From Spirogloea muscicola (lineage: Eukaryota; Streptophyta; Zygnematophyceae; Spirogloeales; Spirogloeaceae): DNA of 64,000 nt. The notes beneath the pieces were generated by a model. That model was not told the origin of the DNA. It ran no database searches and worked only from the letters and a program-made list of their open reading frames with translations. The stretch is taken from the NCBI GenBank assembly GCA_009602725.1, contig WELB01000049.1, positions 659,833-723,832 of the forward strand, written 5' to 3'. This document shows, in pieces, positions 2,094-61,640 of the stretch (positions within the stretch are counted from its first letter, which is position 1; each line of letters starts with the position of its first letter). The position numbers were made by a program, and so were the translations under genes.

Positions 2094-4509
2094 TCATATT
2101 TTGGCTGAGCTGCTGCGTCTCCAGCGCATGAGTCTCTCCTTACCCTGCAAAAATCCACCACCAGCTTGAGTGCCCAACCGGAGACTGTTACAATTTTGCT
2201 GGTGCATGCCAGAGACCATCCGAAAATGCACTACGTTAGCAGAGTGGCAATCTGTCTTAAGCTTAGGCCTGCAGAGGCAGTCTTTGCAAATATATGTACC
2301 TGAAACTGTGCACGAAGATAAGAGGACCCTATTTTGCACAGCTAGCTGCTATGCCTGTAGCAAAGCTGTCCGTGCAGGGAGGGTAATGGCAGCACACCGT
2401 TCGCAGAGGGAAACTCTCTGGCACCTCGTTTGAAGTCATCTCAAAGCCCAGTGGTTCAAGCACTTCCTCATATCTACAGCACATATAAGACCAGAAAATA
2501 TCTTACTTACTGTCTGCTGCAGAACCTGGCCCATTTGCCAGCCTCTTTCTGCAATTTCCGTGTATATGAGCAAAGCACAAGCAAAGCACAAGGATTGAAA
2601 GAGTTCCAGACAATTGGCTGACTGTGGTAGGCAAGCTGAGAGGCGCTCGCAGGTCAGGCTGTAGCACGCCAGTGTTCTGCATTGAAGATGAAGGCTTACG
2701 CTTCAACAGAGACGGCATATGGTGGGCCTCCAGTGAATTCACCAATCTGATGAGCACAGTACACATCAAGCCAAGGCCTCATCTCAACGGCAGCAATTTC
2801 ATGTATTGAAGCCTTTGGAAGAGCATGTCATGCCTAGCAGCTGCCTCACAGCTATTCCCTTTCAGCAATGCTTCTGTTCTCTGCTTTCTTCAGGAAGCCA
2901 TTGATTCAACACATTTTCACATGCAACAAGCAATGCCTAATCCTAATACAGCAAAATGCCTACCGGGAAGGCCAACGTTATCAGCTCTCCATCAGGTTGA
3001 AGAAGCTCAGTGTACTTCTGAGCCCATTGGACCCTCAACGAAGGATCCAAGGCACAAAAGAAGCTGTAGACGACACACAGAATGATGTCAGTCCTTGAAG
3101 GATGAGTTTCAAATTAGAATATCACCACCATCTCAGCTGATAAATTTTACAATACAATATATTGGAATGCCAGCTGCGCAACACCAGTCGTAGCATCCTC
3201 ACTCCAAACAGACTGGCTGAAACTTTTCATTTGTCGTATACAATCTTCAACGTTGTTGCTAAATCAGCGAACCTGTAAAGACAAGCAATGATCTTGTTGG
3301 GACTGAAGGGCCCATTGCTAGCTTACGTGTAATCAAATGCGAGGTCAAATAGCTCAGAAGGCTTGTACGCGAAGAAATCCCCAGAAATGAAGGTTGCGTG
3401 AGGACCCCCTGGCTCACCTTCTGCAAGCTGTGAGGAAGCTTCGACTAGCATCAAACAAACACCACATATGTGGCTAAGCCTTGACTATGCAGTCATACAA
3501 GAACAAGCCTACACAGAGCTTCAGGTGCAAAACAACAGACTGGTCGTGAAGGACAAGCGATAAGCTGACCTGACGGGCCCGCTCTATGGCTGACTCAGCC
3601 ATGTCTAAGCCAACAACGCGACGAGCGGGACTTGCCAAAGCGACCACATCATACCCCTGAGATACGGGACAGTAATTTTGTGCTGTGCTACAGTAAGGCA
3701 TAAGATAAATGTACGCTTGACAGCTATTTTTGGCCACTTGCTGCCTCTGTTGATGCACGAGTAGTCACTTGGTCAACTTTTCTTGCTCTACCGCTCTACC
3801 AAACATCTCAAGGCCAAGTGTACAGTTGCTCACTGATGTGTCAGCAAGCACTGTGCCAGCATGGAAGAATCAAGACCACTGCCACCACAACTAATAGGCA
3901 GGCACAACATTCAGGAAGTCCTTGCAGGCTGATGGCCTGGCCTGCTGGCCAACTTACAGAGCCGCATCCAGGGACCAGTGCGCGGCCACTGGGCAGGCTG
4001 CCACTCTTCACCAAGGAGGCCACAGCCGGAGTCACCCCCTTGCCGTCCCACGGTGTGATGCCCAGCTGCCACGCCTTCTCCCATCCGTCTGAACCAGCAA
4101 CCAGGGCAACCAGAGCAACCAGAAGAGCAACTTGCACTCAGGACGGGGCACACATCATCAAATCCATGACCGCTTGTACAAGCGCCCCCGTTTTTCGACA
4201 AAGTGTAGAGCAGCTACTCTGCACAGGTGCTTCTGTCACGGTGGAGACCAGCTAGGTTGGCAACCATCTTGTCATATAAGAAAAAGCTCGGCAATGCTTT
4301 GAGCTGGTGGCTGTTAGGGATGCGGCACTTATTTAGTCCTCCTGATCAGGGTGCTGTCTGTAACCAGAATATGTGCTCTGAAGGCAGTGTATGACTTGCA
4401 GAATCAGCACAAATTGAGCTGCCCGACGCGGCAAACCAGATAACTCACTGGGCTGGCGAACCGCCTCCTGCAGGCGCCTCATCGTCTCCGGATCGGCCCC
4501 GGCAGCCAT
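2094..4509 (-). CDS. TPMT/HOL-type thiol (halide/thiocyanate) S-adenosylmethionine methyltransferase
   Basis: Eight exons join in frame with canonical splice sites: 4509-4449, 4088-3958, 3656-3570, 3427-3327, 3063-2964, 2746-2700, 2473-2398 and 2144-2094. They give about 217 residues, the usual length of this family. The start is ATG 4509, before AAGADPET. Family signatures appear in order: [16 protein letters not shown] near residue 22, the SAM-binding loop [16 protein letters not shown], the acidic VVGLDMAES, then [33 protein letters not shown] and the C-terminal GKERLMRW. Plant relatives methylate iodide, bromide, bisulfide or thiocyanate; animal relatives methylate thiopurines. The substrate here is not readable from sequence. 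No signal peptide is visible, so it is probably cytosolic. An in-frame upstream methionine at 4608 would add an alanine/proline-rich leader and cannot be excluded. Confidence 0.88.
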
Positions 4510-4671
4510 GGTGTCGCCGTTCTCGGCTTCAAGAACGGCAGGCGCCGGCGCACTCGGGGAGGGGCTGTCGAGAGGGGCGGCGGCGGCGGCACACAACCCG
4601 AAAGCCACCCTCCTCTGAGCGCGGGAACGGGAAACAAGAGCGGCCGCCGGGAGCGCGAGGCGCGCCAGTGA

Positions 4672-4705
<34 letters not shown>

Positions 4706-5944
4706 CAGGGGCATGCTCGGGACTGCAGGCGGGGGCGCGAAGTGGGTAAGGAGGGAGGGGCCGGAGGAGAGGGCTCCGGTTAGCGGATGGGGCACCTCCG
4801 GGGAGGCGGAGCGGCGCGCCGGGGAGGAGGGGGGAACCAGGGGCGAACCAGGCCCCGTGCGCTTCCAGTAGCCGGGCGCCTGCTGACGAAACGGGGAGCC
4901 TCGGTGAGCCTCCGCGCGCCTTCTTCAGGGGCAAGCGCGGCCAGATTCTTCTCGATGGGCCATGCGCGTCATCAGACGTGCTTGCCGTTGTGCTTGGCCA
5001 CTCTGGCATTCTAATGATTACAAAACAGCAATGATTACACAACAATCATCAAAACGGGAAGATATCGATTCAACACACGCAAGTTTCTCGATGTGCTTTT
5101 TGCGCTTCGAGGAGGTTGGGACTTGGGACAAAGGGTGTACTGGCTTGGTTTGGCCTTCCCTTTCGTTTCATCATTTTGCATTCATCGTATTCGTTTCATG
5201 CGCACCGCGCGCCTTCTTTTGTGGACCATCGATCTGGACTTTCAAGGGGCGGTGGGTTACCACAAGCATTAGAGCAGAAGTACTTGTTGCAGAATGCGGC
5301 TCTCGCTTATTTTGCAACATTCTACGCTCTAGCCACCCATCAGCGTGCTGAGCGTTCACTAAGCCAGGCCACAGACTTTGCGGGCTCTAGCACCCCAGGT
5401 TAGCCTGTCGAGAATCTGTTTGCTCACTCGTGGGTGCTAGAGTCCCCCTTCACTTGTGCTTCTCGTTCTGTGCAATCTACCATGCAGCCTGACAAGGTCA
5501 ATGTGATTGGATGCTTGACATCAGGCATGCACAAGTCGACCTTCACGTCGATTGACTTCCTCATACCTTATAGTGCTGCATTTACAGCGAGAAACTCTAA
5601 TGAATATCATCAGATCTAGCATTCATAGACATGCCACTTGAAGGAAGAGCAACTTGGTGCAGCCTACAGCAGCACTCTCTTTGCTTTTCCTCTGCACACA
5701 AAGTCATTCCAAGTTGTTCCCTATCTAAAGCTCATTTGTCTGCAGCACTTTTCTGGCAAAGTGATCTGACAGTGTGCATGTTCTCGCCACTCATGCCCCG
5801 AGCCCCGAGCTTGCCAATAGCTTTTCCCAAGCAGGTCCAGAAATACGTCTGTCGGTGTGCCTGACATGGTATCCAGTCAACACTGCCTGCTGACAAGTGC
5901 AGTCCTGTGTGACTTCTACCCTCTTGTGCTGCAAGAATTTGCGG
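4510..5944. other. intergenic, GC-rich promoter side then retroelement relics
   Basis: The first 400 bases are GC-rich, with an alanine-coding GCG microsatellite at about 4672-4704. An ATG at 4671 on the plus strand is followed by a good donor (GTAAGG) near 4746, so a divergent first exon is possible, but no later exon was found. After about 4960 the sequence resembles retroelement 3' tails. From 5460 to 5944 I see nothing recognisable. Confidence 0.4.
4960..5460 (+). mobile_element. retroelement 3'-end relics
   Basis: A tail-like segment near 4970-5015 (GTGCTTGCC then TTGGCCA) matches tails at 9588, 59310 and 61190. Around 5415-5451 the translation ends in LLTRGC followed by a stop. This is a variant of the LLTRGY C-terminus carried by all copies of the repeat family in this window. 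Between them is a stretch (CGCACCGCGCGCCTTCT) shared with 13896. No reverse transcriptase is present. Confidence 0.45.
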
Positions 5945-45181: not shown

Positions 45182-48100
45182 CTAATCCTCCAATGTCGCC
45201 TTGCCACTAGAGCCAAACATCCGCAACTTCTCCCTCACGACTTCCTGCGCATCCCATGAAACGCTGGTGAGCAACACCTTCAACACGAGCTTCACGAGCA
45301 TCGTGTCTCAACAATTTGAGTCTGCCTGCTTGCCTCAAACCTCAATAACTGACAGTCTGAAGCTATTTCTGAGCAACAAGCACGCAACCTGAGGATGAGT
45401 CTTACGTAGCCATCGGCTGTACATATTTAAGTACTCCCACCACTCCTAGCCAACTGCATCCTTATTCTACAGTACATCGACTTGTTCTGCTCTGATTGAC
45501 ATGGACACTTTGTCTACAAGTAATTGCCACACCATTAAAAGCCCTGCTCATATACATAGCCTCAAGAAGTAGTGATGGCATGTGACATGCAAGTTGCTCT
45601 GTGCTGCTTCTTCCGAAGAAGCAGCACAAAGCCATGTCCTCTACAGATCAAATCCTTACCTCCATAGCTGTGCGGGCCAAGCCCATGGCATCAAGGAGAT
45701 CCTTATGATTGCCTTGCAGGGCTGCCACATAGGCAGCTCTCAACTCAGTGTTGACATTAAACTTCCTCACGCCATACTTTATGCACTCCTGAACACACAA
45801 GCAACAGTGCAGTGTCTTATGCCTACAAGTTACGGCATTCTAGAGAATGATGAAAAAGCTACGCAGTATGACTTCAGAAGCACTTATGTGCTCACCTGCA
45901 ACCATGCACTGTAGTTAGCAGCATCAGTTTAAAGGCACGCATCATTGTTGGATCTGTCGCACGCTTTGGCGAGGCATCCTGTAACATGACCCCGAAACGC
46001 TTACCTTAACAAGATCGGCAGGAAGGCCTGAAGCACCATGTAGGACAAGGAATGCATGATGACGACTGGTTATGGCCTGAACGGCCTGCAGACGAAAGAG
46101 AACAGAGGTCAGGCCATGTGAACGACGCCAAATGGTTGACTTCGTGTTGCCAGGCAGTACTAATTGCTGCTGCAGCAGAGTGCAACTGCAGCAGCAAAAG
46201 CTTAATACAGGAGCATAGTGGATGACATACCTTCAATCGTTCAATGTCAATCTGAGGTCCCTGCGGAGGGTACTTGCCGTGAATGTTTCCAATGCAGACG
46301 GCTAAGGCATCAACTTGCGTTGTAGTCAAGAAGTCCTCAGCCTGCAAAAAACATTTTGCTAAGTATAGTGTGACTGATGCCTCATTTACGAATTTCTTGC
46401 ACAATGGCACTCATGCATCTTTCTGCATGCCAGTCATTCAAATATAAGAGATCTCTATGAGTTATCTGTTGGAGTGTTACCTGTTCCGGGTCTGTGAGAC
46501 AGCCCTCATACTCCTCCACGGTCAACCCGTCCTCTGTCCCAGACAGACGTCCCAACTCAGCCTCCACCAGCAGACCTCTTGCATGTGCAGCCTCCACCAA
46601 TCGCTTACTGTACTGGACATTTTTCTCATACTCTAGGCTTGAGCCATCCACCATGACTGAATGGAAGCCCTGAGCAGATGGACAACACACAATCATGAAG
46701 TTTACCAACATGTGTTCAACTAGTGGAACAGCAATGCAACTATCTGTTAAGAACAGCATACTGTCTGTGTGTGCCTTCTATATGTTTGTCCGAAGCTGAT
46801 GAGTAAATCGCTTTTGTACCCCAAGACGATCACATTACAGGCAATGCCTGAGCTGCCTTGACAGAAGAAAGCCTTATGCTCAGTAAGGGTGACTATGGTA
46901 GTACTAGGGCAACACCGTGGTTGGAGTCTAGCTAGCAGAGCTAGCTAGACTCCACTTAGGTGATGGAGGAGTACAATCGTCCAGTCACTTAGAGGTTAAT
47001 GGAAACAACGAGACCGCTTGCATGAGGCGTCGTGATGGTGACTGCTACTTTGGATGCTGGTACCTTGTCGAGGGCAGCCATCACTTCTTCCTCCTTGCTT
47101 GCATGATCCAGATGCACTGCTACTGGGACCTTGTGCAGAAAATAACATCCAAATTGGTCACTCAGCCGAGGATCATTAGTACAGAATAATTGCCAATTAA
47201 GCTTGGCGCTATTTCACACGAACATCAGACGCTTGGCCTTATACTGTTCCTCCTTGTTGTATGCACACGTGACAGAAAATTGCCACAAGAATATGACTCC
47301 ATCCCTGTGAAGAATGCAAAACGCGCAGCCTCGGCAGGCAAATGTGTATTAGATCTTGCAAAAATTGGATCCCACCTGAGAGTACATAGCAGCTGCTGCG
47401 CAGAGTGCCACAAGGGGCTCCCCACCATGCTTTAGGGCACTGGGGTGAATCTGAGATAAATAAGACTAGTGTAATGAGTGTAGTGGCATTAAGATTACTG
47501 TCTTGCAGTCTAATCAAGCGCACAGAGCCTGTAACCCTTGACTATTGGTGTGCTGTCGCATTTCCTGGCAAGTTCGACTCGACCGACCATAAGCATAGTA
47601 GAAGGCTCATCATTAGCAATTGCTGTGATTTCTAGATTGGCGAAAGTGGAAGCATGGGAAGATAGGTTGAGCAAGATGTCAACTTGTATGTGCACACCTG
47701 CAGTATGGCCGGGCTGCACTCAGCCTCAGCAGCAGATACTACCGCCATTGCTCCTTCCAGGTTGTAAACATTGAAAGCTCCCACAGCATAACCCCCCTTC
47801 TCAGCAGCCTGTTCCGAGAAGAATGTACTTGAGCCAGAAGGCGAAGGAATGACGATGGAGGTGGAGATTAAGAATGTCGATCTAGGAAAAAGTAGAAGAG
47901 AGCCAACAGAATTTTCACAAACATTTGAAGGACGCCAGTCCTTACAAGCACAGAGCAAAGGAATATGTTTATCAATCGACTAAATAGTACCTCTAGGATG
48001 GCCCTTGTTGAGGTTGTCGGAAGCAGTGCCCATGTCTTCACAATCATGGCAAGCGCGTCAGCGTCTCCGACATTCCCTGCATGCTCCTCATCTGCTTAGA

Positions 48101-51100
48101 TATAGCTTTTCTTAAACCACTGTGGCATTTATGGCAGCCTCAAGTTGCAGCCATCTATCACCTGTCAAGGACAGCGTTAGCATAATTGGAAGGCCAGCCC
48201 TTGCTGGCTACTAATTACTGTCCACTTTCTTAGCTTGATCTACACCATGTTTAATTTGATAGCTCTCTCGTTTAATTTACAGAGGCACGGACCTGGGAAA
48301 ACAATGTAGGGTACTCCCACATGTCGGCTGCCAGGCCCCAGTTGCCACAGTGGCACTCCTGACGCTGCCTGGCCGACAACCTCAGCCCTCCTTGCTTCCA
48401 AAGCCTTGACTGCAATGTCTGATGATGTTATTCCACCCTGCACAGACGTCCTTGAATGGCCAACTGAATGACATGGCATGCGCCAGCAATAGTATGCAGA
48501 TGAGCTTTTAACCGCTGTTCCTGCCACATCATCTGGTCTCCAGTTGCAAATCAGGTAGTATGATCATTTTGCAGATCATAGCAGCAATCTGGTTACCTTG
48601 GCTAATATGTATCGTGGCCTGGTGCTTATGCTGCTCACAATCTCCACCAGGCCCGAGCTCACTTTGGATCCGATCTCCAGGCTGGCATCGCCAGCTGTAG
48701 CCCCGGCAACCAACAATCGTCAGCTATGGCATAGGCATACTGGGTAAGCGGTAATGTGCCATTCTTCTTTGGAACACTCATCGGATGGTAAAAAACATCT
48801 ATTTGAGAAAGCGACTGTATAATCTCGACCGTAAATGGCCACATTGTCAGGACCACCAATGCTTCAATGTGAAGTTCGCGATGTTCGCGTCCAGCAGATG
48901 CACCGTGGAGATGAGATGGAAGAGTAAGCATGCAGAATCTCCTAAGCCTGCACAGGAGGAGGGCTTCGTGGCAAACATCTGCCAGTGATGAGCTCCCTGG
49001 ATGTCACAACAAGAACATCCTTCCCCTCCCTGATTGCTCCATCTGCCACCTCCGAAGCTCGCCGGATCTCTGCCTTTCTAGGGGCGTCGCCGTCAGTAGC
49101 AAGGCTCCGTGCATTCACCTGAATTCAGAAAGACAGAATTAGTTGCTCAGAATTATTAAGCTGTTGCCTTTGCCTTGGAGAGCTTACGCACAGCAGTACT
49201 GCAAAATTTAGCTACACACCAGCTGCACAGACTGGCAGTCAGAAGATCAGTCCACACGGATCAAGGCTCGGCCTCAACCGTAATAGTGGTGAGGATGCCG
49301 CCACAGTGCTTCTGAAGCTGCTGAACCTGTCATGCAAGTGAACTACCAAGCTGAAGTCAGTTTCCAAAGCTATAAACTCCTAGCAATTCTGGAGAGCACA
49401 ATTTCAGCAACCAAACAAGGCATAAACAGAGCTAGTAAATACAGCAGAAAAGCCTGCTGTACTGAAAGGCAGCTTCCAGCTGCAAGGCTGTCAATCTTGC
49501 CAAGGAATGTGCATGAGAATTGCCAGGGACATGGGTCAAGGCCAACCTGGCCCGTGGTTTTAGGGACGTAAGATCCAACTACTATAAGGGCACCATTCCT
49601 GGATCTGACGTTCAGGTCTCTTGGTGTCAAAGGTGGCCTCGTTATGATGCCTAAGCGAGCAGATACAAATGAAGCTGCAGTCCTACACAAGAAGCTCATG
49701 CCCTTCCGCTCGGCCTGCAACACCATGTGTATGACAATCTTTCATTGAGTGTCCTGTATAATGGAAGGACTCACAGTACTTGGAGTGTTTGTATCCGGAC
49801 TGACAGCTCCAAATTCAAGTGAATGGCAGAATAATGATTGGTTGGTGCATAGTCATAAAAGCTGCACTGAGAAAGCTGAAGTGCGGCAGACATCAACATA
49901 CGTATACGTGCAGTAGAGAGGCAGTGCAGCTGAGCTCACCTGAAGCATCCCTGCTGAGAATACCCTCATGTCCTTGTCACTTGCAGCATTGACGATGCAG
50001 GTGCCTCCCTGCAGACGTGCGTGCTAGACGGCTTTCATGGAGCTTCAGGCGACTTGATCGATCAATACTCAGGAGCTAAATAGTTGTATGGGTTGCTTGC
50101 CTTGAGACCAAGCGAAGACTTCACAAAGACAAGTGGGTAAGTATCCCTATTGAGAGGTATATATAGCGCCAGCTTTATCCCATTTCCTCACCTTCTTCAC
50201 AGCGCACAGCTGCTCACAAATTGCTGTTGGGCCTCCTCTGCGGATGGTCTCTATGGAGATGGAGGCAACTTCATTGGCTGCTACTGCACCTTGTGTCTTC
50301 TCTTCCACCCACTGATCAGAGTAGTGGGTAGCACATGTCGTCATCAGTGGTCAAGTTGGGCAGCAAGATGCAACATGGCAATTTTTCCAAAACTTTCCTA
50401 TAGAGACTGATAACTGGGCTGCATTTGGCTGGCCTCTTGCTCCTGCAATTTGCTGCAGCTCATTGTAAAGGATGGTTGTCATGACAAGGCTCGGCACCTG
50501 TCGGAGATTTGAACTTTTGTACCCGAATGCAGCGTCCTTGGCAAACTCTGTCTGACCAGCTGGCACTAATCTGGCACATATGGAGGTCAAGTGTATCCTT
50601 CAAGCCCTGATCTCAGCACCTTCAGCTACCAATAATCAACTACTTTCGACTAGCCAACGACAAGAGGCCTCTTCATGTATGTAGATGTGTAGTGGGCTAG
50701 TATTAGAAGCTAGCAAGCTGTATGATCTGAAGCTAGCAGACATCAACGTCCAAATAAGTGTTGTGCACGAGATTAGTGTGCCCTCAGCTGCCAAGTCGTA
50801 CTGCTGAGCACCATAGCTATTCAAGGCAACCTCATCCACGACAACTTCCATTGAGGAGTAGCAGCTCACAACCTGTCCCCATCTGCAACGTAATGTACAT
50901 CGTTGATGGTATATCTCCCACCCTGAAGGAAGAAAGGGCAGATGATGGTGGCATCAACAGTACCCACAACTGATGCTGCTGCTTCAGCCTCCTGCCAAAG
51001 ATCAGAAAGAAACGCCACTGCTCAGGCCTCAGATTCCTGCAGGCTCGGCAGAGCTGTAGTCCATTTATGATGTAACTGGGAAGCCTTCGTCCCGAGAGTG

Positions 51101-54100
51101 CAGGTCGTAATCTGTGGACCTGGGGATAATGACCTCTAAGTGTTGAGTCTCCTCGGAGGACTATGGTGAAGCCTTTTCCTTCGGCAGCCTCCTTCACGTT
51201 CCTGCAGATCTCTTGTGTCAACTCAAAAGCCTGCACGACGACGGCCCGAGTGCAAGCTGAGCTTTTCTGTGAGTCGGAGCATGCACTTTGAGAAAGGCAT
51301 GCAGAGTGGTGGATGGGACGGGCAAGCTCCGCATGCCTGCTTAGTGGGAAGAGATCTGGAATTTGTGAGGATGAAGAAGCATGCCGGCTTCTTCTCCATC
51401 TCACATCTCAGTGCCTCAACACTCCTGCAAATGAAGTGCTGCTCATAGTGAGTTGTTGCACTTCTTTAGTTGGTTTTTAAGGCTTTCTAATAAGCTCCAA
51501 TATCGAGCTGAGTGAGTTGGACAGGAACAGGCAGGTGGGCAAAGCTCAACTCACCACTCCATTAGAACAGAAACCCCGTGTACTGTCTGAGTGCCAGTGG
51601 GGTCGTCATCAAGGACAACCAATGTCTTGGCTTGGCCTCCCTCCTCTATTTCATGAATCTCTGCTGCTGGATCTGAGGGCCACTCTGGTGGCAGGCTCTG
51701 TAGAGCAGACTCCTTGGAGAGCACCTCTTCTTGAGTGTTGCCATCAAGCTGGTCTGGAGCAGGAAGGTCTTGCTGCTGACGGTCTGGCAATGGGGAACCA
51801 GCAGCTGTAGCATCCTTGGCAACCACCGGAGGCAAGCTTGCTTGTAAGGCACTTGACTGGTTGTCAGGACTTGCGGCCCTTGAGATGCTGACACCCGTTA
51901 GGATCTCAAAGACCTTCTCATGCACAACAAACACACAATGGAGGTCATGTAAGTGCCTCGTATAAGATCGTATGTGAGCATCCCAACTGGCATGTCCCCT
52001 CTGTCGAGGGTATGATATGAGGGCCTTGAAGCTACGGCTATGGGCTGGCTATCCAGGTCAGTGTCTCATACAAGGCCTACCTTTGCCACGGCAGCATCAT
52101 CCTCCCTACCGAATCCAGCAGCGGAAGCTGCCATTGACAGTCACACACGGTGTCACTTCCTCCACCACTGCTCTAGCCATGCATCTACATGTGTCTTATA
52201 ATGAGATAGAAATGTATGTATCTGGAAAGCTTGGTCACATCACTTCCTTGACATGCAATGGAAAGTTGCACAAACATCTGATCTGTGATCACCAACAGGC
52301 ACAAACCATCCTCACCAAACAGGAATTGCTGATGAGCAGCAGCAGCAAGAGGAAGAGGCATCCTCTGGCCTTTGGCTTCTCCCAACACAATACCCTACTC
52401 AGGACGTGCATCAAGCAGCCATGCGCATTTAGTAGGCACATACAAGGAGCGCACTACACCAAGCAAGTTACACCAGCATACTGTTTAACGGTCATTGAGC
52501 TGAACTTTGACAATGCTCATGCTGAAGTGACAGAAGCCAATCTTCATTCGAGGCAGCTAAATCGTGTGACAATTTAGCCCTTGCTTTTGTTGCGGGGGCA
52601 CACTGCAGCCACTATCAGTGCCGGTTCTTTGGAACATATGACAACTGATCATCCCAATACTATTTTCTTTCACAGGTCTGAAGTTCCTGCAGCATGTGAG
52701 GACTGACAAGAGGCTCATGCAGGGGGTTTTGGGTCTACCAGGTCCTTCACAAAAATGTCAACTGCTGATCGGGGGGAGTAGTCATTGTCTAACATATGTG
52801 GCACTCTGTTGTTGTACATCCTGTCACAATCCAGCACTTGTTGAGGACAATCTGGACCTCTTTGTAGTCACAGCACTGGGAAAGAGGACTTCCACCTCAT
52901 ACCACTGACAAACACTATGCTCGAGGGTAGAGGAGGTCATGATCATGAATCCCTTTCGGTTTTGCCATCCATTGAGTGAGATAGGCTTGATGTCAAGAGG
53001 ACTGAGGACCCATACTTACCATGAGGCGCCAGCAGCAGAGCTGATGACCTTGAATAGCAGCCGGGTGTCCAGCCCTGCTCTTGCGCCCAGGGCCATGGCT
53101 TCTGCAGCAACTGCGATGTGGACGCCTGCCAGCAGCTGGTTTACCATCTTGACTGCACTGCACACTCAGGAGGAAATATCAACATTGACATTTTCACACC
53201 GGGCCAAGCCAAGTCGCCCAAGCACATGTTCATGTCTGAAAGGCGATGAAAATGCTCATAAGCATGATGCTGTTGGTACCTTCCAGCCCCTGGGCCCCCA
53301 GGTATGATAAAAAGATCTTTGCTCAAAGCTGCCAGTCACAGGAAAAGTCGTCACCTGAGACCTATAATGTAACATGTTATGTGGCATAGGACCACGTCAC
53401 AAGGTAATCTACAAGTATTACCTTTCAGTTAACCTACAAGTATTACCTGCAAAATATGTTCACGTACTACCAACCTAACATGTAATTGCTACAATTGCAA
53501 AGCCACTGTTGAAGTACCTTTGAGTATGGGACTTGCAGCTCTCATTGCGGCATCTGACCCAGCTGCCATGATCTGCATGCCATTACATACACTGTGCCTC
53601 TCTGACGGGCCACGATGATGACAGGCAGAGATGGGCGGGCAGCGACGAACAACTTTGTTGTCCAAGAAAATTGACTTCAGCTGCTGAGGACCAGGGTGCA
53701 GGACCAGAAAATCCGTGCTACCTACACGACAGAAAGATATCTATTGCGTGAAGATGCTGAGCGCACATCTGTAAACACCTGAGAGGCATTAAATGGTGTG
53801 AGCATACAGTGCGAGCAACTATTGTGAAGGAGCACATAGAGCAGTGGAAACAGTATACCGTCAGGGTGCCATCAGCTGCACGTGCGGTACCGCCAGAGAC
53901 TGGACTATCAATCAGCATAAGACCGCGTTGCTCATCTGGGAGCACAAGGACAATTAGCAATCACACATGTAATCAGATCAGAAGACGTTAAATTGCTACA
54001 GCTATCTGGACTGCTGTTGTGTATACCAATGGCTAGCATGAGAGCGAGTGCTCCATTGGCTCCCAGTGCTCGCAGGCTGCTTACCATTAAGCTTCCTCTC

Positions 54101-57100
54101 TAGAGACTTGACATAGTCTGGAGAAACTGTGGAGCAAAGCATCAGAACTGCTCCTTCCTCCATGGCTGGCAGATGGAACAAATATGAATAAGTAACACAT
54201 CCTCACCATGCTGATGGCGATTATCTATGGACTCTCTACACATCTTGCAGCACGGCGTCTAATGGCCCACTCTGAGAGAGCTCTCCTTGCTGTAAGATGA
54301 TGGCAAGAAATTGCAGAGGCACATCTTCGATTTTGTGAGTAATGAGTAAGTGATACTGCATCACAGCATTGACCATCAATCTGAATAGCTGAGCCTGAAA
54401 AACCTGACACATTGTTCATACCTGGTGCCACCCCTTCGGGGCCCCGCAGAACTTGCTCGACCTGGTCCTCGCTGGTCACCATGATGATTACCACTTGAGC
54501 GCCTAAGTACAACCACAACAACACAATATTTACCACTTGGGCGCCTAATTACCACCACAACAACACATGTCCCCAAGGTTTCTAGAAGGGTTTCACAATT
54601 GGGCCTATGGTTTCATGTATGGCCCTGCCTGCCTGCCACTCTGATAGGCAACGTATGCACCAGTCCTTTTGTGTCATACTGAACATCACCAGAGCCAGAG
54701 GGGTAATGATGGAGTTAACACTGACCTTTCACTGTCATTGCTAAGTTGCTGGCCGCCTCTCCCCCTAAAGCTTGGAACTTATCTAGAGCAGGCTTGAAGA
54801 CCTGCACAACTCAAGGTCACCTCTTGTTACCTGTGCTGTCATGAACTCTCAGTGACCACAGCATGTTCAACATCGCGCACTATCACCAGCACAAGGGGAG
54901 GCTGGGTACATATCAAGAAGCACAACTGATAAGTGAAGTGAAGGGCCTTGTCAGTAATGTGGGTCACTGCCAGGTTGACTGCCTTACTTGCCCAGCTGAT
55001 TGACTAGCAGCTGGATGCTGAAGAGCCTAAGTTACCTACATCGAAGCCTCGCGTCCTCAGGCCAGCCTTAAGCAGTGCAGATGCCATGCCAATGCCCATG
55101 GCTCCCAGGCCTATGAAAGCCACCACATACTCCACATCTGAAGTACAGCCAGCCAGAGCTTCACTCTGATGCAAGTATTCAGCAACCTGGCTCTTTGACC
55201 CTGCACTGGTGGACACGTTGACTCCACCGGCCTTCTCCCAGATCTGCACATGCTTCATTTGTTTAGCTCTGCTTCCATGAGCCTTCTGTGCAAGATTGGC
55301 TTGGGACTTTGATGTATCCTGCTTGCCTTGTCAGGTTCTTTACTGTGAGCACAAGATACTTTTACACAAGTCTTGATGGTTACTTATGACAATACCCACC
55401 TTGACCACAGCAGCATCATCCTCTTTACCCAAGCCAGCTGCAGATGCTGTAATATAAGAAAAATCAATGCGTATTCCTCAGGACTACTACTTGCTGTAAG
55501 CTGAGGCTGTAGCACATGGAAATGCCCTTGGTAGCTTGAGTATGGCATTGGTGACCATACATCTGGAAAGACTGGATGGGAGCTGCGTGACATGCAATGC
55601 AGGCCATCACAAAGTCCAACTGACCACAGTTGCATAAGTAGTTGCAAATCTACATGCAAATATCTGTATCTCACCAAATAAGAATTGCTGGAGGGCTGTG
55701 GACGCAAGCGGGACTGGGAACTTCAGCAATCGCGCTTCCTCAGCCACGATGGCCTACATGTCCACCATGTGACACTCGTGCACTTTAGGCAGTTGTGTAG
55801 TAAGCGTAAGCCAAGAGGGGCTCTTATTGTACGTGCAAGTCACTGCCAGGAGCTGGCAACAATGTCATGAAGGATATACCCAAACATTGCTTATTCTGGT
55901 GCAAAGGCAGCAGCTGCAATGCTTACTAGGTCCTTGACAAAGATATCCAAGGCTGATTTGGGACTGAAATCATTGTCCAACATGTGCGGAACTCTGTTTT
56001 GAAACATCCTGCATATTCAGCGGTTAACAGTGTCCAGTTCCTGACAGTTAACAACATGTTATTGCAAAATGCAGGTATGACTGCAGCATGCAGAAACATA
56101 TACTTCATTGTGCAGCAACAGCCATGCTGGCAGGCTTCAAAAAGCCATTGTAAGTAATTGTAGAAATTGTTCATTGTTGATAACTTTCAGCAGCATCGCC
56201 TTAGAGAGACAGAAAGAGTCTCTGACACTTGATTGGTCTTACCAGGAGGAGCCTGCAGCTGAGCTGATGATGTGGAAGAGGAGTCGGGTATCAAGGCCTG
56301 TCTTGGCTCCTAGAGCCATGGCCTCAGCAGCAGTGGCAATATGTACTCCTGCCAGCAGCTGATTGACCATCTTCACTGCACTGCAGTTTTCAGCAAACAA
56401 GGCAGCATACTCACAAATGCGACATGTAAGCCTTGCTGCCAGACTCAGGCTCAAGACAACGTTCCAGCATATGGTGCAAAGAATGATCGTTGAGCTGACC
56501 AACACGGCTCCCCAGGACCTCTTAATGAGAGAGGAGATATATGTACGGATGTGGAATGTTGGTCCTGCCTGTAGTGACGTGCTGTGAGCAATTACCATGT
56601 CAGCTTATAAGACTATAAGTTTTTGGCAGATTGAGGGGGTTCAAGCTTACCTGCCGTAGCCTACGCCGCCAGGGATGGTGTAGAGATTTTCACTCAAGGC
56701 TGGACACACAAAGGCATGTCTGATTATTGTTAGCTTGCAATCACAATGTAAAAGTGTTGTAGCAATACATGGCTTTCATACATCTGCTGAAATTTTTAGC
56801 AGATGCCAAAAGCACGATATCATTGAGCTCTACTGCACTGCACCTCAACAACCTACTGAGTCTGCAAGTCAACCTGGACTCAAGTATCCTTCTGCTAAGA
56901 AAAGCACAGAGCAAAGGTTTACGGAAAGATGTGATACTTGTGACATAGCACCGGGCTTCAGTATCTCTTACCTTCGAGTATTGGGCCTGCTCTTTGAAGG
57001 GCCTCCTCAGATCCTGCACCCATGATCTGCACGTCTATGACATTGTCTGCTTGTCAGGCTTGTCACTTTGCACACGGAGCACAGACTGCACAACGAAGGA

Positions 57101-58631
57101 GTAACGCTTCCACACCTCTACATGATGATGTGATTGTGGTTACATACATGTACTGAGAGAAAGTGGCTCATAATATCATGAAGATAATTGTGAAGCTAGA
57201 CTAATGCAGCACTCTGTAAAACACCGTGACCTACAGTCAGCGCCCCTTCCGCAGCCTTTGCGACCCCGCCAGAGACTGGGGCATCCACCAATTCGATATC
57301 CCTGCCGCCACCTGATTGATATCAGTGACTGCAACTCAGATCCCTGTGCTGATAGTGAGAGTAGAAATGATTTCTGGCGGTTCTGACTAGCTTGTAAGAT
57401 CCTTCCCTACGGCGGATGCATTGTGACCTGGTCGTAAAGGTGGGTAAATAGCTTCTAGCTTGCGTAGACTGCAGACTCCTGAATTGTTTTGTGACTTGCT
57501 AATCGGCGTCTGCACTACTGGGATTGATGCTTGGAACTGAGTGGACCTTGGAGGCGCTTGACCAAGGAGCGCACAAAATCCGGTGGCACAGTTGAGCAGA
57601 CAATGACCACTGACTTGTCCTCAAGCCCTGCGTGAGTCAGTTGGTGTGCGCGCACGTGTAAAGCAAAATGTCAGGCCAGGCCCAAGGGGCCAGCATGAAT
57701 TGGCCACCAGGTCTTATGTACTGGCTCAATACATAGCAGACGACTTCAAGCACAACGGCAGATAGATGGATGATCCGTAGCAGCGCTGCCAGCTTGTAGC
57801 CGCCGTATGCCAAAAGCAGCAGCAATTGGTGAATATGGTCAGCGCCCGGCTTACACTAGCTTAATTGCAGGGCTGGGGAGAGTAACATTCCACTGATTGC
57901 AGTAATACCTGAAGCCGCTCCGTTGTCGCCAAACAGTGCCTCCGCCACCTGAACGGCATTGGTCACCATGACAACAAGTGCAGAGACACCTGCTCCAAAG
58001 TGCAAGATACTTAAGCTTCTTACAGTTGCCTAACCAACTCTGGTGCACTTATCTTCTGAACAAGTTCAATGTCCTTACTGCCTTCTTCTGCAAGCAGTCA
58101 GTGCGACCGCCTGATTGAGCAGATGTTGAGCAGCAAGCAGAAAGTTGGAGGACCTGCGGAGACAGCTGCTGGTGTGGCCGCAGCACAGCCTCCACTGGCT
58201 TCCAGGCGGTCCATGGAGGGCTTGTATACCTGCTTGCCCGGTAACGGAGCAGCAGCAGGCAGGCACTGATTAAGTCAGGAATTTGCCGCAGGTTCACGAA
58301 GCAGGAGTCAATTCACCAAATTGAAGCAGAACCATAAGATGCACTGCTAACACAAGCAAGATATAAGTCTCCAGCTGATAGAGGTTCTCAGCACTGGCTG
58401 GATACCAAAACAAGCCCAGCAGAACTGGGGCACCACAATTGGGCAATAGGCTGGCCCAATTGTGCAAGGTGACGGAGGAGCTCTGCGCTGTTCGTGCAGG
58501 CAGGCAAGGGGGCTGACATCGAAGCCGACGACGGTGAAGCCTCGGCGGACAAGGCAGGCGGCCATGCCGCCGCCCATGGCTCCCAGGCCGATGAAGCCGA
58601 CGGGCCCACCGGGAGCGCCCGCTGCCGCCAT
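45182..58631 (-). CDS. four-part fusion: two HIBADH-like dehydrogenases, acid-sugar kinase, class II aldolase
   Basis: About 43 small exons give about 1,430 residues in the order known for the plant ketose-bisphosphate aldolase class-II family protein: NAD-binding module 1, module 2, DUF1537/four-carbon acid-sugar kinase, aldolase. The start is ATG 58631 (MAAAGAPGGPVGFIGLGAMG); the stop is at 45182 after GSSGKATLED. Family knowledge suggests oxidation of a sugar acid, phosphorylation and cleavage of the product to a C3 phosphate, all on one chain; the real substrate is unknown. Each dehydrogenase keeps a GLGAMG nucleotide loop and the catalytic-lysine motif AVKMVNQ. The aldolase keeps HLDHA, VEAELGRLSGTED, GNIHGKYP and HGASGLP. 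No transit peptide is obvious, so it is probably cytosolic. One intron (51336) needs a GC donor; the others examined have GT-AG borders. Confidence 0.9.
45600..45628. repeat. perfect 13-bp hairpin in the last intron of the fusion gene
   Basis: TGTGCTGCTTCTT and its reverse complement flank CCG. It lies about 32 bases past the donor of the last intron (donor at 45659). Confidence 0.8.
46922..46954. repeat. perfect 15-bp hairpin in an aldolase-module intron
   Basis: TGGAGTCTAGCTAGC and its exact reverse complement are separated by AGA. It lies in the intron between the exons holding HLDHA and GFHSVMVDG. Confidence 0.8.
47991..51913 (-). other. module 3 of the fusion: DUF1537 / four-carbon acid-sugar kinase
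   Basis: The first exon (51913-51555) closes module 2 (VFEILTGVSIS), adds a Gln/Pro-rich linker and enters the kinase at TLVVLDDDPTGTQTVHGV. Later exons carry FFILTNSRSLP, FTIVLRGDSTLRGHYP, DATIICPFFLQGGRYT, VHYVADGD, LVPAGQTEFAKDAAFGY, GGTCIVNAASDKDM and FLCRTAASFVSARLG. The end has VVGSYVPKTT, then the nucleotide-binding domain (PRYILAKGGITSSD, GVPYIVFPGNVGDADAL). Relatives phosphorylate threonate- or erythronate-type acids or their keto forms. Confidence 0.88.
52081..55243 (-). other. module 2 of the fusion: second HIBADH-like dehydrogenase
   Basis: Exons are 55243-55040, 54801-54726, 54502-54422, 54165-54085, 53935-53859, 53572-53518, 53328-53280, 53157-53020, 52820-52739, 52394-52316 and 52127-52081. 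The first exon finishes module 1's tail (IWEKAGGVNVS), adds a linker and opens module 2 with AFIGLGAMGIGMA. The next ten exons equal those of module 1 in length and phase. Motifs include VIIMVTSEDQ, LMLCSTVSPDYV, LIDSPVSGGTARAADG, AVKMVNQLLAGVHIA and HQQFLF. Confidence 0.9.
54486..54569 (-). repeat. 42-bp tandem duplication covering a splice acceptor
   Basis: Two adjacent diverged copies each contain the acceptor-plus-exon start (TTAG then GCGC and CAAGTGGTAA, minus strand) and a GTTGTTGTGG stretch. The acceptors lie before 54502 and before 54544, exactly 42 bases apart. Confidence 0.75.
55400..58631 (-). other. module 1 of the fusion: HIBADH-like dehydrogenase
   Basis: Exons are 58631-58518, 58229-58154, 57989-57909, 57627-57547, 57311-57235, 57026-56972, 56699-56651, 56380-56243, 56008-55927, 55753-55675 and 55446-55400. 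They encode the Rossmann opening VGFIGLGAMGGGMA and the segments VVMVTNAVQ, VIVCSTVPPDFV, LVDAPVSGGVAKAAEG, GGVGYGSAVKMVNQ and ALQQFLF. The last nine residues of this set include KEDDAAVVK. This is the complete 3-hydroxyisobutyrate-dehydrogenase fold including the helical C-terminal domain. Confidence 0.9.
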
Positions 58632-58904
58632 TGCCTCCGCCCGCAAGCTCAACCCAGCGGGCTTGGCTCGTGCCAACGTATGACTGCCACTGCAGGCTGC
58701 TTGACGGCCTCGGCTTAACGAGCTTCCATTGTTTTGCCGTGACTGTCGCGCCCTCGCCGCAGCCTCTGGCTTGCGCCGCGAGAGCCCTCTTCTTCCCCTC
58801 AGCTCATCTGCCTCTCCGGCACCCCTTCCCCCAGCTCCCTCGCCAGCTCAGTGGCGTTGGGCAAGCCCCGTGGACGTCAACTGCAAGCGGGACACACTCG
58901 TCGC
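58632..58904. other. promoter side of the fusion gene
   Basis: GC-rich sequence upstream of ATG 58631. The minus-strand reading frame stays open a little upstream (KPAGLSLRAEA) without another ATG. A retroelement C-terminal-like stretch (plus, LACAARALFFPSAHL) may begin near 58750. Confidence 0.4.
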
Positions 58905-61640
58905 CCGCGGGGTGAGTGGCAAAGCCAGCCCAAAAAAGAATGGACAATGTCCAAATCCCAAGAAAAAGGTGCCGAAGAAGGACTACACTACAAAACACGA
59001 GATGATGCAGAGGGAAGCTCAGAACCCGCGAGTGAGATTGAGGCAAGGCTACTTGCCAGCCCCTCTTCTCTTTCCCGGCTGAGATGGGCTTGCCAGCTGC
59101 TTATCTGTCGTTGTTGCGACGACGAGTTTCGGCCTGTTTGCAGCGTGCTCAGGCTAATGCTTTCCACCAGAAAGCTGGGCGAGCTCTAGTTGGTGGCAGA
59201 AGGGCTTCGTATCTGCCATCTAGAATCCAGCCATCGGTTAGCGACCTTTATGTTTTGACCCGTGGTTACTGAGCGGGTCAATCTACTGTAGCTTATGTCG
59301 GTCTTAAGATGTGCTTGCCTCTGTACTTGGCCATTTGGCCTTCGTTTGTTTCAAATACACGATATTCCTCTTCTCTATAGGCGAGCACTTCCTTCCTAGA
59401 CTTGGAAGCCGTTACACTAGAAACCCAGTCTGGAAACCCAGCCATTGGTGTACGGCCACACTTCCAGCGAGCTTCGCTGAGCATCCCTCTGCATTATTAT
59501 TGGTGTGTAGTTTCTTTTACCGGGCACCGTTTGTGGCCTTTGAGGCCGTTTGAGGCCTGCGGACATTGTCCATTCTTTTCTGGGCTTGCTTTGCTAGCCC
59601 CTCTTCATGCCACTCCAGCAATGGGCTGACGGTCTCCACGCTCGTCGCGTCGACCTTGTGGCCACCCCACCAGCAGGCGGGCCACGTCTTCTCCTGGACG
59701 TGGTGACTACTGACTCATATGACCGCTCACACCCAACCCAGTTTGCCACCAAGGCTGGGTATGCGGTAGCCTGCGCCGCTCGGGCCAAGGAGCTCAAATA
59801 CGCAGATCACCTGCAAGAAGACGAGTTCTTCCCGCTCGCCATCGACACGCACGGGGCGCTGGGCGCTCGGCGGCTCAAGCTGCTAAACCAGCTCTCACGC
59901 CACGCCATTGTCCGCCGCTTCCATGGGGAGCCGGTGGACTCCCATGCAGGGTGCTAGCGCAGGTGTACCGCATGCGCTTGGCCGTCTCGCTGCAGAGGTC
60001 TATGGCCCGCGCGCTGCCCTGCGTGCAGGCAGAGCCCTCGCTGCTGCCTCTGGCTCTGGCCAGGGGACCCGCTTCCAGGAACCCAGTCTCTCTGACCTGA
60101 GGCTGCTTAGTAGGCGTTACTGAGTGCTTCGTAGCTGCTTCGTTTCTTCTTTGTGCTTGTTGTTCTTCGTAATTTCCCCAGAGCCAGAGGCAGCAGCGAG
60201 GGCTCTGCCGGCACGCAGGTGCAGCGCGCGGGCCATAGAAAGAAGTGCGCTCCCATAGAGAAGAGGGGCTGGCAAAGCCAGCCCAAAAAAGAAAGGACAA
60301 TGTCCAAAGCCAAAGAAAGAGGAGCCGGAAAGAGGACTACACTACAAAACAATGCAGAACACAGAGACGATGCAGAGGGAAGCTCAGTACCCACGAGTGA
60401 GCAACATCAGGTCTGAGGCCATAGACCTCTGCAGCGAGACGGCCAAGCGCATCGGTACACCTGCGCTAGCGACCCGGCTGCAGGGGCACTGCCGGCCCTT
60501 CTCCCCCTTCTCCTCCTTCTCCCCCTTCTTCTTTGGTGGCCGAACAGAAGAAGTTGCACAAGTACAAGGACCACCCAGCGGGTGATATCTTTTACCACCT
60601 GGCCATGGACATCCATGGGTGTTACGGGGGTCGGTGGTCCTCGTTACTTTCGCTGCTGGCATCTCAAGCTGACCAGCGGCGCCGGGAACAGGGTGCAGCC
60701 CTTCCCGGTGGCTCGGTGCCTTTGGGTCTTGTGTCCTGCTACCGTATGCGTTTGTCTATGTCGCTACAGCGTTCCCAAGCGCTTGCTTTGCATCGCCGCG
60801 CTGGTCGTGCCCTTGCAGCAGCCTCTGGCTTGCGCAGCGGGGTTGCTCTTCCTCCCCTCAGCTCATCTGACTTCCTACTGCTGACACGGGGTTACTAAGA
60901 GCGCCCTGGCTGTCTAGCCTGTGGCTCCGTCATGATCACCTGTATGCATCTGGCTGGCTTTCACAGCCGCTCTTTTAATATCAGCAGCCGCTTCCTTTTT
61001 CTCCCGACATTGTCCATTCTTTTTTGGGCCGGCTTTGCCAGCCCCTCTTCTCTATGGGCGCGCACTTCTCTCCCCCCCCCCCGGCCATCCCTCCTCCTAC
61101 CTTTGCTGCTGCCCTACTCCATTGGGAGAGCCACTTCTTCTAGCAGCCTCAGAAGCTGCTAGATGCTAGCTGCTACGTCAGAAGATGTGCTTGGCCGTTG
61201 TACTTGGCCATTTTGGCCTTCGATTGTTTCAAACGCACGAACATTTTCTTCGCGGCCCATACTCGCGTGTTAGCTGGTGGGACAAGGGCTTGTCAATCTA
61301 AGAGCAAGCGCGGCCAGATTAACTGGTGGCTGGGAGAGGCCAGCCCAAAAGAATGGACAAGGTCTGAAGGAGTCGGAGTGCTAAGGACTGAGACAGCAGT
61401 AAGAGTAGATGCAAGTCTGAGTAGCTAGCAGGCGGATCAATCTGCCGTCCGGTATTCGGGCATCAGTTTTGCGGGCTCTATGTGCTGACTCGTCGTTACT
61501 GAGCTGGTCAGCTTAGCAGCAGATGATGTAAATGTGTCACTGCGGTGGCCTCTGTACTTGGCCACTCAAGGCCCTCCACCGCTCGATCCACACCCCATTC
61601 CTCGCGACCTGGCTGGCTTTCACAGCCGCTTATTTAACGA
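58905..61640. mobile_element. retroelement island, subfamilies A, B, D and E 3' ends with cassettes
   Basis: Plus-strand fragments are B (59084-59274, MGLPAAYLSLLRRRVS to VSDLYVLTRGY), A (59607-60123, RVDLVATPPAGGP, LLLDVVTTD to LSDLRLLSRRY), D (60533-60898, KLHKYKDHPAGDIFYHLAMD to SSDFLLLTRGY) and E (about 61435-61502, ending YVLTRRY). A minus-strand mosaic lies at 60245-60470. Cassettes are at about 58915, 59565, 60258, 60954, 61010, 61330 and 61607. Tails occur at 59310-59365 and 61185-61240. Fragment A begins directly after a cassette at 59606. No reverse transcriptase is present. Confidence 0.65.

What the first reader, a model, noticed from the sequence alone, without database searches (positions are those of the whole stretch)
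52081..58631. Two tandem dehydrogenase modules with ten consecutive exons of identical length and phase
Read on the minus strand, module 1 exons 2-11 are 76, 81, 81, 77, 55, 49, 138, 82, 79 and 47 nt. Module 2 exons have exactly the same lengths in the same order, and the exon ending GFD also ends at the same codon in both. So the modules share every intron position and have no exon indel in 765 nt. Protein similarity is uneven: the 138-nt exon is nearly identical in protein while the others are much less so. Synonymous sites in the 138-nt exon differ, so recent gene conversion does not explain it. This suggests duplication of an already intron-rich module followed by long preservation of structure.
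Basis: partly seen in the sequence, partly recalled or inferred. Interest (0 to 1): 0.8.

Follow-up and report, generated by a model that had tools for sequence, protein, structure and literature searches.

The report
Algal vitamin-C salvage gene, mirrored introns
In an alga closely related to land plants, a gene predicted to break down a vitamin C waste product holds two back-to-back enzyme units interrupted at the same 11 places, so the unit likely gained its introns before it was copied; in the flowering plants examined the first unit has lost its coenzyme-binding motif, which would explain a failed enzyme test published in 2025.

Summary
Confirmed and extended. The ten exon lengths, phases and borders are exactly as described; the two modules share all 11 internal intron positions. 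They are the front half of one predicted 43-exon, 1432-aa gene (window 58631-45182, minus): L-threonate dehydrogenase twice, a DUF1537/OtnK kinase, a class II aldolase. It is public model SM000049S16787 (Spirogloea muscicola, Zygnematophyceae, by its ID form) and the counterpart of Arabidopsis LTD (AT1G18270), which a 2025 paper calls absent from green algae after naming five species. Two homeologues keep the first 26 exons. Deletions in shorter plant gene models end at the alga's intron sites 40 of 64 times (shifted control 4.1); published plant genes have about 41 introns, 42 here. So a likely bacterial module gained 11 introns, was duplicated in tandem, and both copies kept them. Whether alga and land plants share one duplication is unresolved. 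Module 2 keeps its NAD motif in 121 of 121 aligned rows; module 1 in 10 (alga, Ceratodon, Selaginella, Wollemia, four unnamed), in no row named as a flowering plant. This would explain why recombinant Arabidopsis LtnD1 showed no activity.

The parts
58518..58631 (-). module 1 exon 1 (114 nt, ATG, Rossmann motif GLGAMG, ends GFD)
58154..58229 (-). module 1 exon 2, 76 nt
57909..57989 (-). module 1 exon 3, 81 nt
57547..57627 (-). module 1 exon 4, 81 nt
57235..57311 (-). module 1 exon 5, 77 nt (DAPVSGG)
56972..57026 (-). module 1 exon 6, 55 nt
56651..56699 (-). module 1 exon 7, 49 nt
56243..56380 (-). module 1 exon 8, 138 nt (KMVNQLL, putative catalytic Lys)
55927..56008 (-). module 1 exon 9, 82 nt
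55675..55753 (-). module 1 exon 10, 79 nt
55400..55446 (-). module 1 exon 11, 47 nt
55040..55243 (-). junction exon (204 nt): end of module 1, linker, module 2 exon 1 up to GFD
54726..54801 (-). module 2 exon 2, 76 nt
54422..54502 (-). module 2 exon 3, 81 nt
54085..54165 (-). module 2 exon 4, 81 nt
   Evidence: same 27-aa piece missing from four plant models
53859..53935 (-). module 2 exon 5, 77 nt
53518..53572 (-). module 2 exon 6, 55 nt
53280..53328 (-). module 2 exon 7, 49 nt
53020..53157 (-). module 2 exon 8, 138 nt (KMVNQLL)
52739..52820 (-). module 2 exon 9, 82 nt
52316..52394 (-). module 2 exon 10, 79 nt
52081..52127 (-). module 2 exon 11, 47 nt
51555..51913 (-). exon K1 (359 nt): end of module 2, linker, start of OtnK-like kinase
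51337..51424 (-). exon K2 (88 nt), followed by a GC-AG intron; absent from public model P0001
51120..51230 (-). exon K3
50873..50991 (-). exon K4
50498..50570 (-). exon K5
50192..50311 (-). exon K6
49940..50008 (-). exon K7
49547..49714 (-). exon K8
   Evidence: K7+K8 missing exactly from a Citrus isoform
49279..49326 (-). exon K9
48977..49118 (-). exon K10
48597..48694 (-). exon K11
48293..48437 (-). exon K12
47991..48076 (-). exon K13 (corrected acceptor)
47698..47808 (-). exon A1, class II aldolase domain
47376..47450 (-). exon A2
47064..47129 (-). exon A3
46481..46669 (-). exon A4
46231..46341 (-). exon A5
46005..46085 (-). exon A6
   Evidence: missing (to within 1 aa) from a Ziziphus isoform
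45660..45788 (-). exon A7
45182..45244 (-). exon A8 with stop codon

Best explanation
The two modules are the predicted L-threonate dehydrogenase half of a predicted 43-exon LTD gene of the zygnematophyte alga Spirogloea muscicola, and they likely arose by tandem duplication of one module, probably of bacterial origin, that already carried 11 introns, whose positions both copies still share. The predicted protein joins two LtnD-type dehydrogenases, an OtnK-type kinase and an OtnC-type class II aldolase. It would oxidise L-threonate, phosphorylate the 2-oxo product and release dihydroxyacetone phosphate, the three-step route of bacteria; this is inferred from the Arabidopsis knock-out and from domain content and was not tested in the alga. 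Both algal modules keep the NAD motif, the substrate motif and the lysine of the family and are under purifying selection, so both are probably active. In flowering plants module 1 has lost the NAD motif and evolves faster, so module 2 would be the working dehydrogenase there.
For: 11 of 11 intron positions and phases shared between modules. The public model of the same gene has the same first and last base and the same protein except for 36 aa. Same exon lengths in two homeologues over the first 26 exons. Both modules singly pass NCBIfam's L-threonate dehydrogenase cut-off of 350 bits (363.1 and 365.4); kinase and aldolase domains by Pfam. Bacterial relatives: the ORF at the match holds one module in 80 of 80 loci kept, and all eukaryotic modules form one group against the bacterial rows, 100/99 and 100/97. 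Plant gene models: 40 of 64 clean deletion ends lie within 1 aa of an algal intron, shifted mean 4.1; 19 of 26 in the modules, shifted mean 1.7. Wheat class II genes 41 introns, potato 42 exons (passages). Three other dehydrogenase genes of this genome have no intron at the same base among the sites that could be read. dN/dS between homeologues 0.25-0.28 for module 1, 0.09-0.18 for module 2. Arabidopsis module 1 scores 216.2, module 2 353.6 against the cut-off of 350.
Against: The trees do not show one module-1 clade and one module-2 clade: the alga's own modules pair weakly (92/75, 85/74) and the deep forks with fungi are unresolved (24/5, 50/69, 47/72). Only 1 diagnostic residue supports alga-plant orthology of modules, against 6 shared only by the alga's two modules. 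Within exons 8-9 alone a module-1 clade is nearly rejected (AU p 0.051). One other dehydrogenase gene (L011) has introns near three LTD sites, about 2, 5 and 6 nt off by my reading; I take these as coincidence, but slid older introns are not excluded. No transcript, no enzyme assay. The bacterial donor is unresolved: Caldilineaceae (Chloroflexota) is nearest with 92/78, 69/12 and 95/93 in three trees and not nearest in a fourth. Moss module 1 (Ceratodon) falls just under the cut-off, 346.8.
Confidence: 0.8

Rival explanations
1. The tandem duplication happened more than once: an intron-rich single-module LTD ancestor was duplicated separately in the Spirogloea line, in land plants and in fungi. 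Shared introns between modules would follow all the same.
For: Alga modules pair (92/75, 85/74), fungal modules pair (89/93), land-plant module clades are separate.
Against: One module-1 clade for alga plus plants is not rejected (AU p 0.475; with fungi 0.181), nor is one clade of alga plus plant modules without fungi (p 0.47). When exons 8-9 are left out the alga's modules no longer pair and fall among plant module-2 rows. A Lithocarpus model lacks exactly residues 251-361, which ends at the alga's junction-exon border.
Confidence: 0.25
2. One old duplication, but the algal modules exchanged sequence long ago by gene conversion, mainly in exons 8-9 and 11, which makes them look like sisters and so alike there.
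For: Exon 8 identity 0.87 within the alga against 0.69 to land plants of either module and 0.62 within land plants. Pairing of the alga's modules is lost when exons 8-9 are dropped.
Against: Fourfold sites are as different in exon 8 (18 of 27) as elsewhere (52 of 83), so any conversion is old; the exon-8-9 tree gives the pairing only 33/0 support; shared substrate constraint would do the same.
Confidence: 0.3
3. The introns were inserted in parallel at the same sites after duplication.
For: Several borders have an AG or similar exonic context.
Against: 11 of 11 coincide in position and phase; about 2e-25 for random sites, about 3e-12 with only 60 usable sites, an assumed figure. Several borders (CGAT|GT, CTG|GAT, TTTG|CA) are not the usual AG|G context (recalled).
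Confidence: 0.01
4. The exon model is an artefact of reading by eye.
For: No RNA evidence here; one of my own acceptors (K13) was 15 nt off and one border uses a GC donor.
Against: Public annotation is identical over the first 729 aa; all 26 exons examined recur in two homeologues with 86-99% identity; plant models break at the same sites.
Confidence: 0.02

Closest known systems
LTD, L-threonate metabolizing domains (AT1G18270; Yamamoto et al. 2025, PMC12540250)
   Same: Same order of domains: LtnD1, LtnD2, OtnK (SBD_N and NBD_C), F_bP_aldolase; 53% identical to the Arabidopsis protein over 99% of the query; similar number of introns in published relatives.
   Different: From a zygnematophyte alga, while the paper calls LTD absent from green algae; module 1 keeps the NAD motif GLGAMG where Arabidopsis has GLDSFS.
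Bacterial LtnD, L-threonate dehydrogenase (NCBIfam NF043037)
   Same: Each algal module alone exceeds the family cut-off; up to 56% identity to the bacterial loci found.
   Different: In the bacterial loci kept the matching ORF has one module (80 of 80) and needs no introns.
Ascomycete LtnD-LtnD-OtnK fusions (Colletotrichum, Fusarium, Verticillium, Pseudogymnoascus)
   Same: Two tandem LtnD modules in 10 of 10 examined, before an OtnK-type kinase (Pfam of P0126).
   Different: Mostly 1100-1140 aa, no aldolase domain listed; relation to the plant duplication unresolved.
Class II FBA genes of wheat, potato, Brassica napus (PMC5470051, PMC11057440, PMC6888112)
   Same: Plant relatives named by their aldolase end: 41 introns in wheat, 42 exons in potato, up to 41 introns in the B. 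napus family (passages).
   Different: Intron sites of the two dehydrogenase modules were not compared in the passages seen.

Membership tests
LTD (AT1G18270 type) | two tandem LtnD-type modules at the N-terminus | tested here: met
   NF043037 over cut-off twice, 363.1 and 365.4 bits against 350
LTD (AT1G18270 type) | OtnK-type kinase (SBD_N plus NBD_C) | tested here: met
   PF07005 149.6 bits and PF17042 121.9 bits in public model P0001
LTD (AT1G18270 type) | C-terminal F_bP_aldolase domain, not Aldolase_II | tested here: met
   PF01116 318.6 bits at 1116-1391 of P0001; Aldolase_II not listed
LTD (AT1G18270 type) | needed for L-threonate dehydrogenase activity in vivo | not testable with these tools
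   shown in Arabidopsis knock-outs (PMC12540250, seen), not in the alga
L-threonate dehydrogenase LtnD | NAD motif GxGxxG, DxPVSGG, KxxNQLL with catalytic Lys (motif roles recalled) | tested here: met
   both modules: GLGAMG; DAPVSGG or DSPVSGG; KMVNQLL
L-threonate dehydrogenase LtnD | oxidises L-threonate with NAD | not testable with these tools
   no assay; family score only
Mirrored-intron tandem module | same intron positions and phases in both modules | tested here: met
   11 of 11
Mirrored-intron tandem module | same sites in land-plant orthologues | tested here: inconclusive
   indirect and partial: deletion ends of gene models hit 10 distinct module sites with clean flanks, 14 in all, of 22; no plant genomic DNA was read
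Mirrored-intron tandem module | modules 1 of alga and plants are sisters, likewise modules 2 | tested here: inconclusive

The most novel reading that the evidence does not exclude
Salvage of the vitamin C breakdown product L-threonate by one multi-domain protein began before land plants, with two working dehydrogenases; the flowering-plant line turned the first into a pseudo-enzyme, and the daisy family cut its NAD half off at the exon 7|8 border. The negative result with recombinant Arabidopsis LtnD1 is then expected, and the algal protein is the better one to purify. The 22 mirrored introns are a natural replicate showing that a gene of bacterial origin filled up with introns and then froze.
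Probability: 0.55. Interest if true: 0.65.

Novelty: new member of a known kind. Interest (0 to 1): 0.52.

Why it matters
It moves the LTD gene back before land plants, against a 2025 statement of its absence from green algae on which a hypothesis about ascorbate levels on land was built. It offers a concrete reason for a published negative assay and names the module to test. And because the same domain is present twice in one gene, intron gain and loss can be counted with an internal replicate: 11 introns were likely in place before duplication, and none of the 11 pairs has lost a member in the alga.

Tried and rejected
Recent gene conversion: rejected by fourfold sites that differ as much in exon 8 as elsewhere. 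Introns inherited from other dehydrogenases of the same genome: L011, L104 and L105 have no intron at the same base among the sites that could be read; L011 has near misses about 2, 5 and 6 nt off. Orthology of modules by tree: unresolved, with and without fungi, with and without exons 8-9. Rows dropped: 6 long bacterial rows after the first tree; flowering-plant and Diphasiastrum module 1 rows were not put in the trees; 25 of 80 bacterial loci went into the first tree; in the deletion test 22 of 96 shorter proteins were left out for low similarity, and 32 of 96 ends lacked clean flanks. Intron sequence similarity between modules: none convincing. Absence of LTD in other algae: not testable; the three protein searches list only the best 120 of 530, 515 and 363 hits, and Marchantia, which has LTD according to the paper, was not named among them. 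Taxon by ribosomal RNA: not obtained; the public model name was used instead.
Full report
OBSERVATION. The reading by eye was exact. On the minus strand of the window, module 1 exons 2-11 and module 2 exons 2-11 have the lengths 76, 81, 81, 77, 55, 49, 138, 82, 79 and 47 nt, the same phases, AG and GT at every border, and an open frame throughout. The exon before each series ends at GFD, and the exon after each series begins at the homologous residue, so all 11 introns inside the module coincide.

WHOLE GENE. The modules are the front half of one gene, window 58631-45182, predicted at 43 exons, 4299 nt and 1432 aa. 41 of 42 donors are GT and one is GC; all 42 acceptors are AG (on the model before the K13 correction, which also uses AG). 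I first placed one acceptor (K13) 15 nt too early and corrected it. [quoted passage not shown]

ORGANISM. The best protein hit is SM000049S16787, locus s49:705014-718463 minus. The window is contig 49, 659833-723832, so that locus is window 45182-58631, exactly the span of my model. The form SM000...S... is used for Spirogloea muscicola genes (SM000027S09592 in a passage of PMC12290401). The species is a zygnematophyte. A passage of PMC7994812 speaks of its genome triplication, which fits the three copies of this gene found in the genome. The public protein agrees with mine except for 36 aa next to the GC-AG intron, which it lacks.

HOMEOLOGUES. Copies on contigs 80 and 48 keep the length and border type of all 26 exons examined, GC donor included; the rest of these copies was not modelled. 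Synonymous divergence between the copies is 0.05-0.22 in the modules.

CHANCE AND CONVERSION. Random insertion would match 11 of 11 sites with a chance near 2e-25; even with 60 usable sites, an assumed figure, near 3e-12. Between modules 70 of 110 fourfold sites differ, 18 of 27 in exon 8, so recent conversion is out. Exon 8 holds the KMVNQLL helix and is conserved in the whole family (0.65 identity to bacterial rows; 0.62 within land plants), yet the alga's two copies are closer still, 0.87. I leave open an old conversion or common constraint.

LAND PLANTS SHARE MANY OF THE SITES. I could not read land-plant genomic DNA. Published relatives have 41 introns in wheat, 42 exons in potato, up to 41 introns in the B. 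napus family (passages). As an indirect test I used plant gene models that lack internal pieces. Of 96 shorter proteins 74 were similar enough to use; they gave 48 internal deletions. Of 64 ends with clean flanks 40 lie within 1 aa of an algal intron site; shifting the sites gives 4.1 on average, 17 at most. In the two modules it is 19 of 26 against 1.7 on average, 15 at most. I take the large maxima to be shifts by one common exon length. The 24 clean ends that miss are not explained. Examples: Magnolia isoform X2 lacks exactly exons 6-9 of module 1; a Lithocarpus model lacks residues 251-361 exactly; four species lack exactly the 27 residues of module 2 exon 4; Citrus isoform X3 lacks exons K7 and K8 exactly.

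ORIGIN OF THE MODULE. All eukaryotic modules group against the bacterial rows (100/99; 100/97). Other dehydrogenase genes of the same genome have no intron at the same base among the sites that could be read, though L011 has three near misses. So the likely order is: bacterial gene, intron gain, duplication. The trees do not tell whether there was one duplication. The alga's modules pair weakly, fungal two-module proteins form pairs of their own (89/93), deep forks are unresolved, and a common module-1 clade is not rejected (AU p 0.475; 0.181 with fungi). Without exons 8-9 the alga's modules no longer pair, but neither grouping is rejected (AU p 0.138 and 0.192); in exons 8-9 alone a module-1 clade is nearly rejected (0.051).

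FUNCTION. PMC12540250 (abstract, text up to the start of its section on L-threonate levels, and Discussion read; [quoted passage not shown] Only recombinant LtnD1 could be made in soluble form, as a fusion, and no activity was found. In 121 aligned LTD proteins (the 120 listed hits plus my model; three rows are this alga, two of them the same gene) module 2 has GLGAMG in 121; module 1 has GLGAMG or GLGSMG in 10, namely the three algal rows, Ceratodon, Selaginella, Wollemia and four unnamed rows. No row named as a flowering plant has it; nor has Diphasiastrum. Against the NCBIfam L-threonate dehydrogenase model (cut-off 350) the algal modules score 363.1 and 365.4, Arabidopsis module 1 216.2 and module 2 353.6, Selaginella module 1 380.5, Wollemia 351 and 353.2, Ceratodon module 1 346.8, Diphasiastrum module 1 254.3. 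Among 16 flowering plants that I picked from the list, mean pairwise identity is 0.61 in module 1 and 0.815 in module 2; among the 7 non-algal rows with an intact motif it is 0.64 and 0.663. In 12 of 12 rows that I recognise as daisy-family species the aligned part starts at residues 174-181; 9 start at residue 178, the exon 7|8 border. could not return proteins over about 1286 aa, so full-length daisy proteins would have been missed there; none is named in the capped lists. The paper's text has no occurrence of GxGxxG, Rossmann, motif, intron, streptophyte, charophy, Klebsormidium or Zygnem.

WHAT IS NEW. The paper states that LTD is absent from green algae after naming five species, all chlorophytes by my own knowledge. 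In searches of the held library I saw no listing of an algal LTD. The gene family is known; the algal member, the mirrored introns and the loss of the module 1 motif in flowering plants are the additions.

Noticed in passing
window 51337-51230: GC-AG intron after exon K2, the same in all three homeologues; public models P0001 and P0002 both depart from my model exactly there.
   Followed up: yes
G000 C80:378500-388000 (L009) and C48:295500-305000 (L010): Two more copies of the gene (first 26 exons read), consistent with genome triplication; other dehydrogenase hits also come in threes (C3/C24/C100, C244/C209/C325).
   Followed up: partly
most of P0121-P0158, P0161, P0162, P0165, P0168, P0266: Ascomycete fungi carry LtnD-LtnD-OtnK proteins without the aldolase (10 of 10 examined have two modules); how they relate to the plant gene (transfer or old inheritance) is open.
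   Followed up: partly
12 rows between P0210 and P0233: Daisy-family LTD proteins listed lack the NAD half of module 1, 9 of 12 starting at the exon 7|8 border; Populus isoform X3 and a Rhizophora isoform start within about 3 residues of it, perhaps from an internal promoter. The search could not return full-length rows.
   Followed up: partly
protein P0012: Diphasiastrum module 1 has lost its NAD motif (GLGPIA), suggesting a second, separate decay of module 1.
   Followed up: partly
L089 around 3589-5852: Kocuria rosea has an OtnK-like and an LtnD-like match in what reads as one 743-aa ORF, a bacterial fusion in the reverse order.
   Followed up: no
L066, L068, L069, L077, L078, L079, L083, L086, L088, L092, L093, L103: 12 of 80 bacterial loci have a second LtnD-like stretch downstream, outside the ORF of the match.
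   Followed up: no
window 58600-61600: Upstream of the gene lies a patch of direct and inverted repeats (arms and copies of 20-92 nt, 78-100% alike), perhaps degenerate mobile elements.
   Followed up: no
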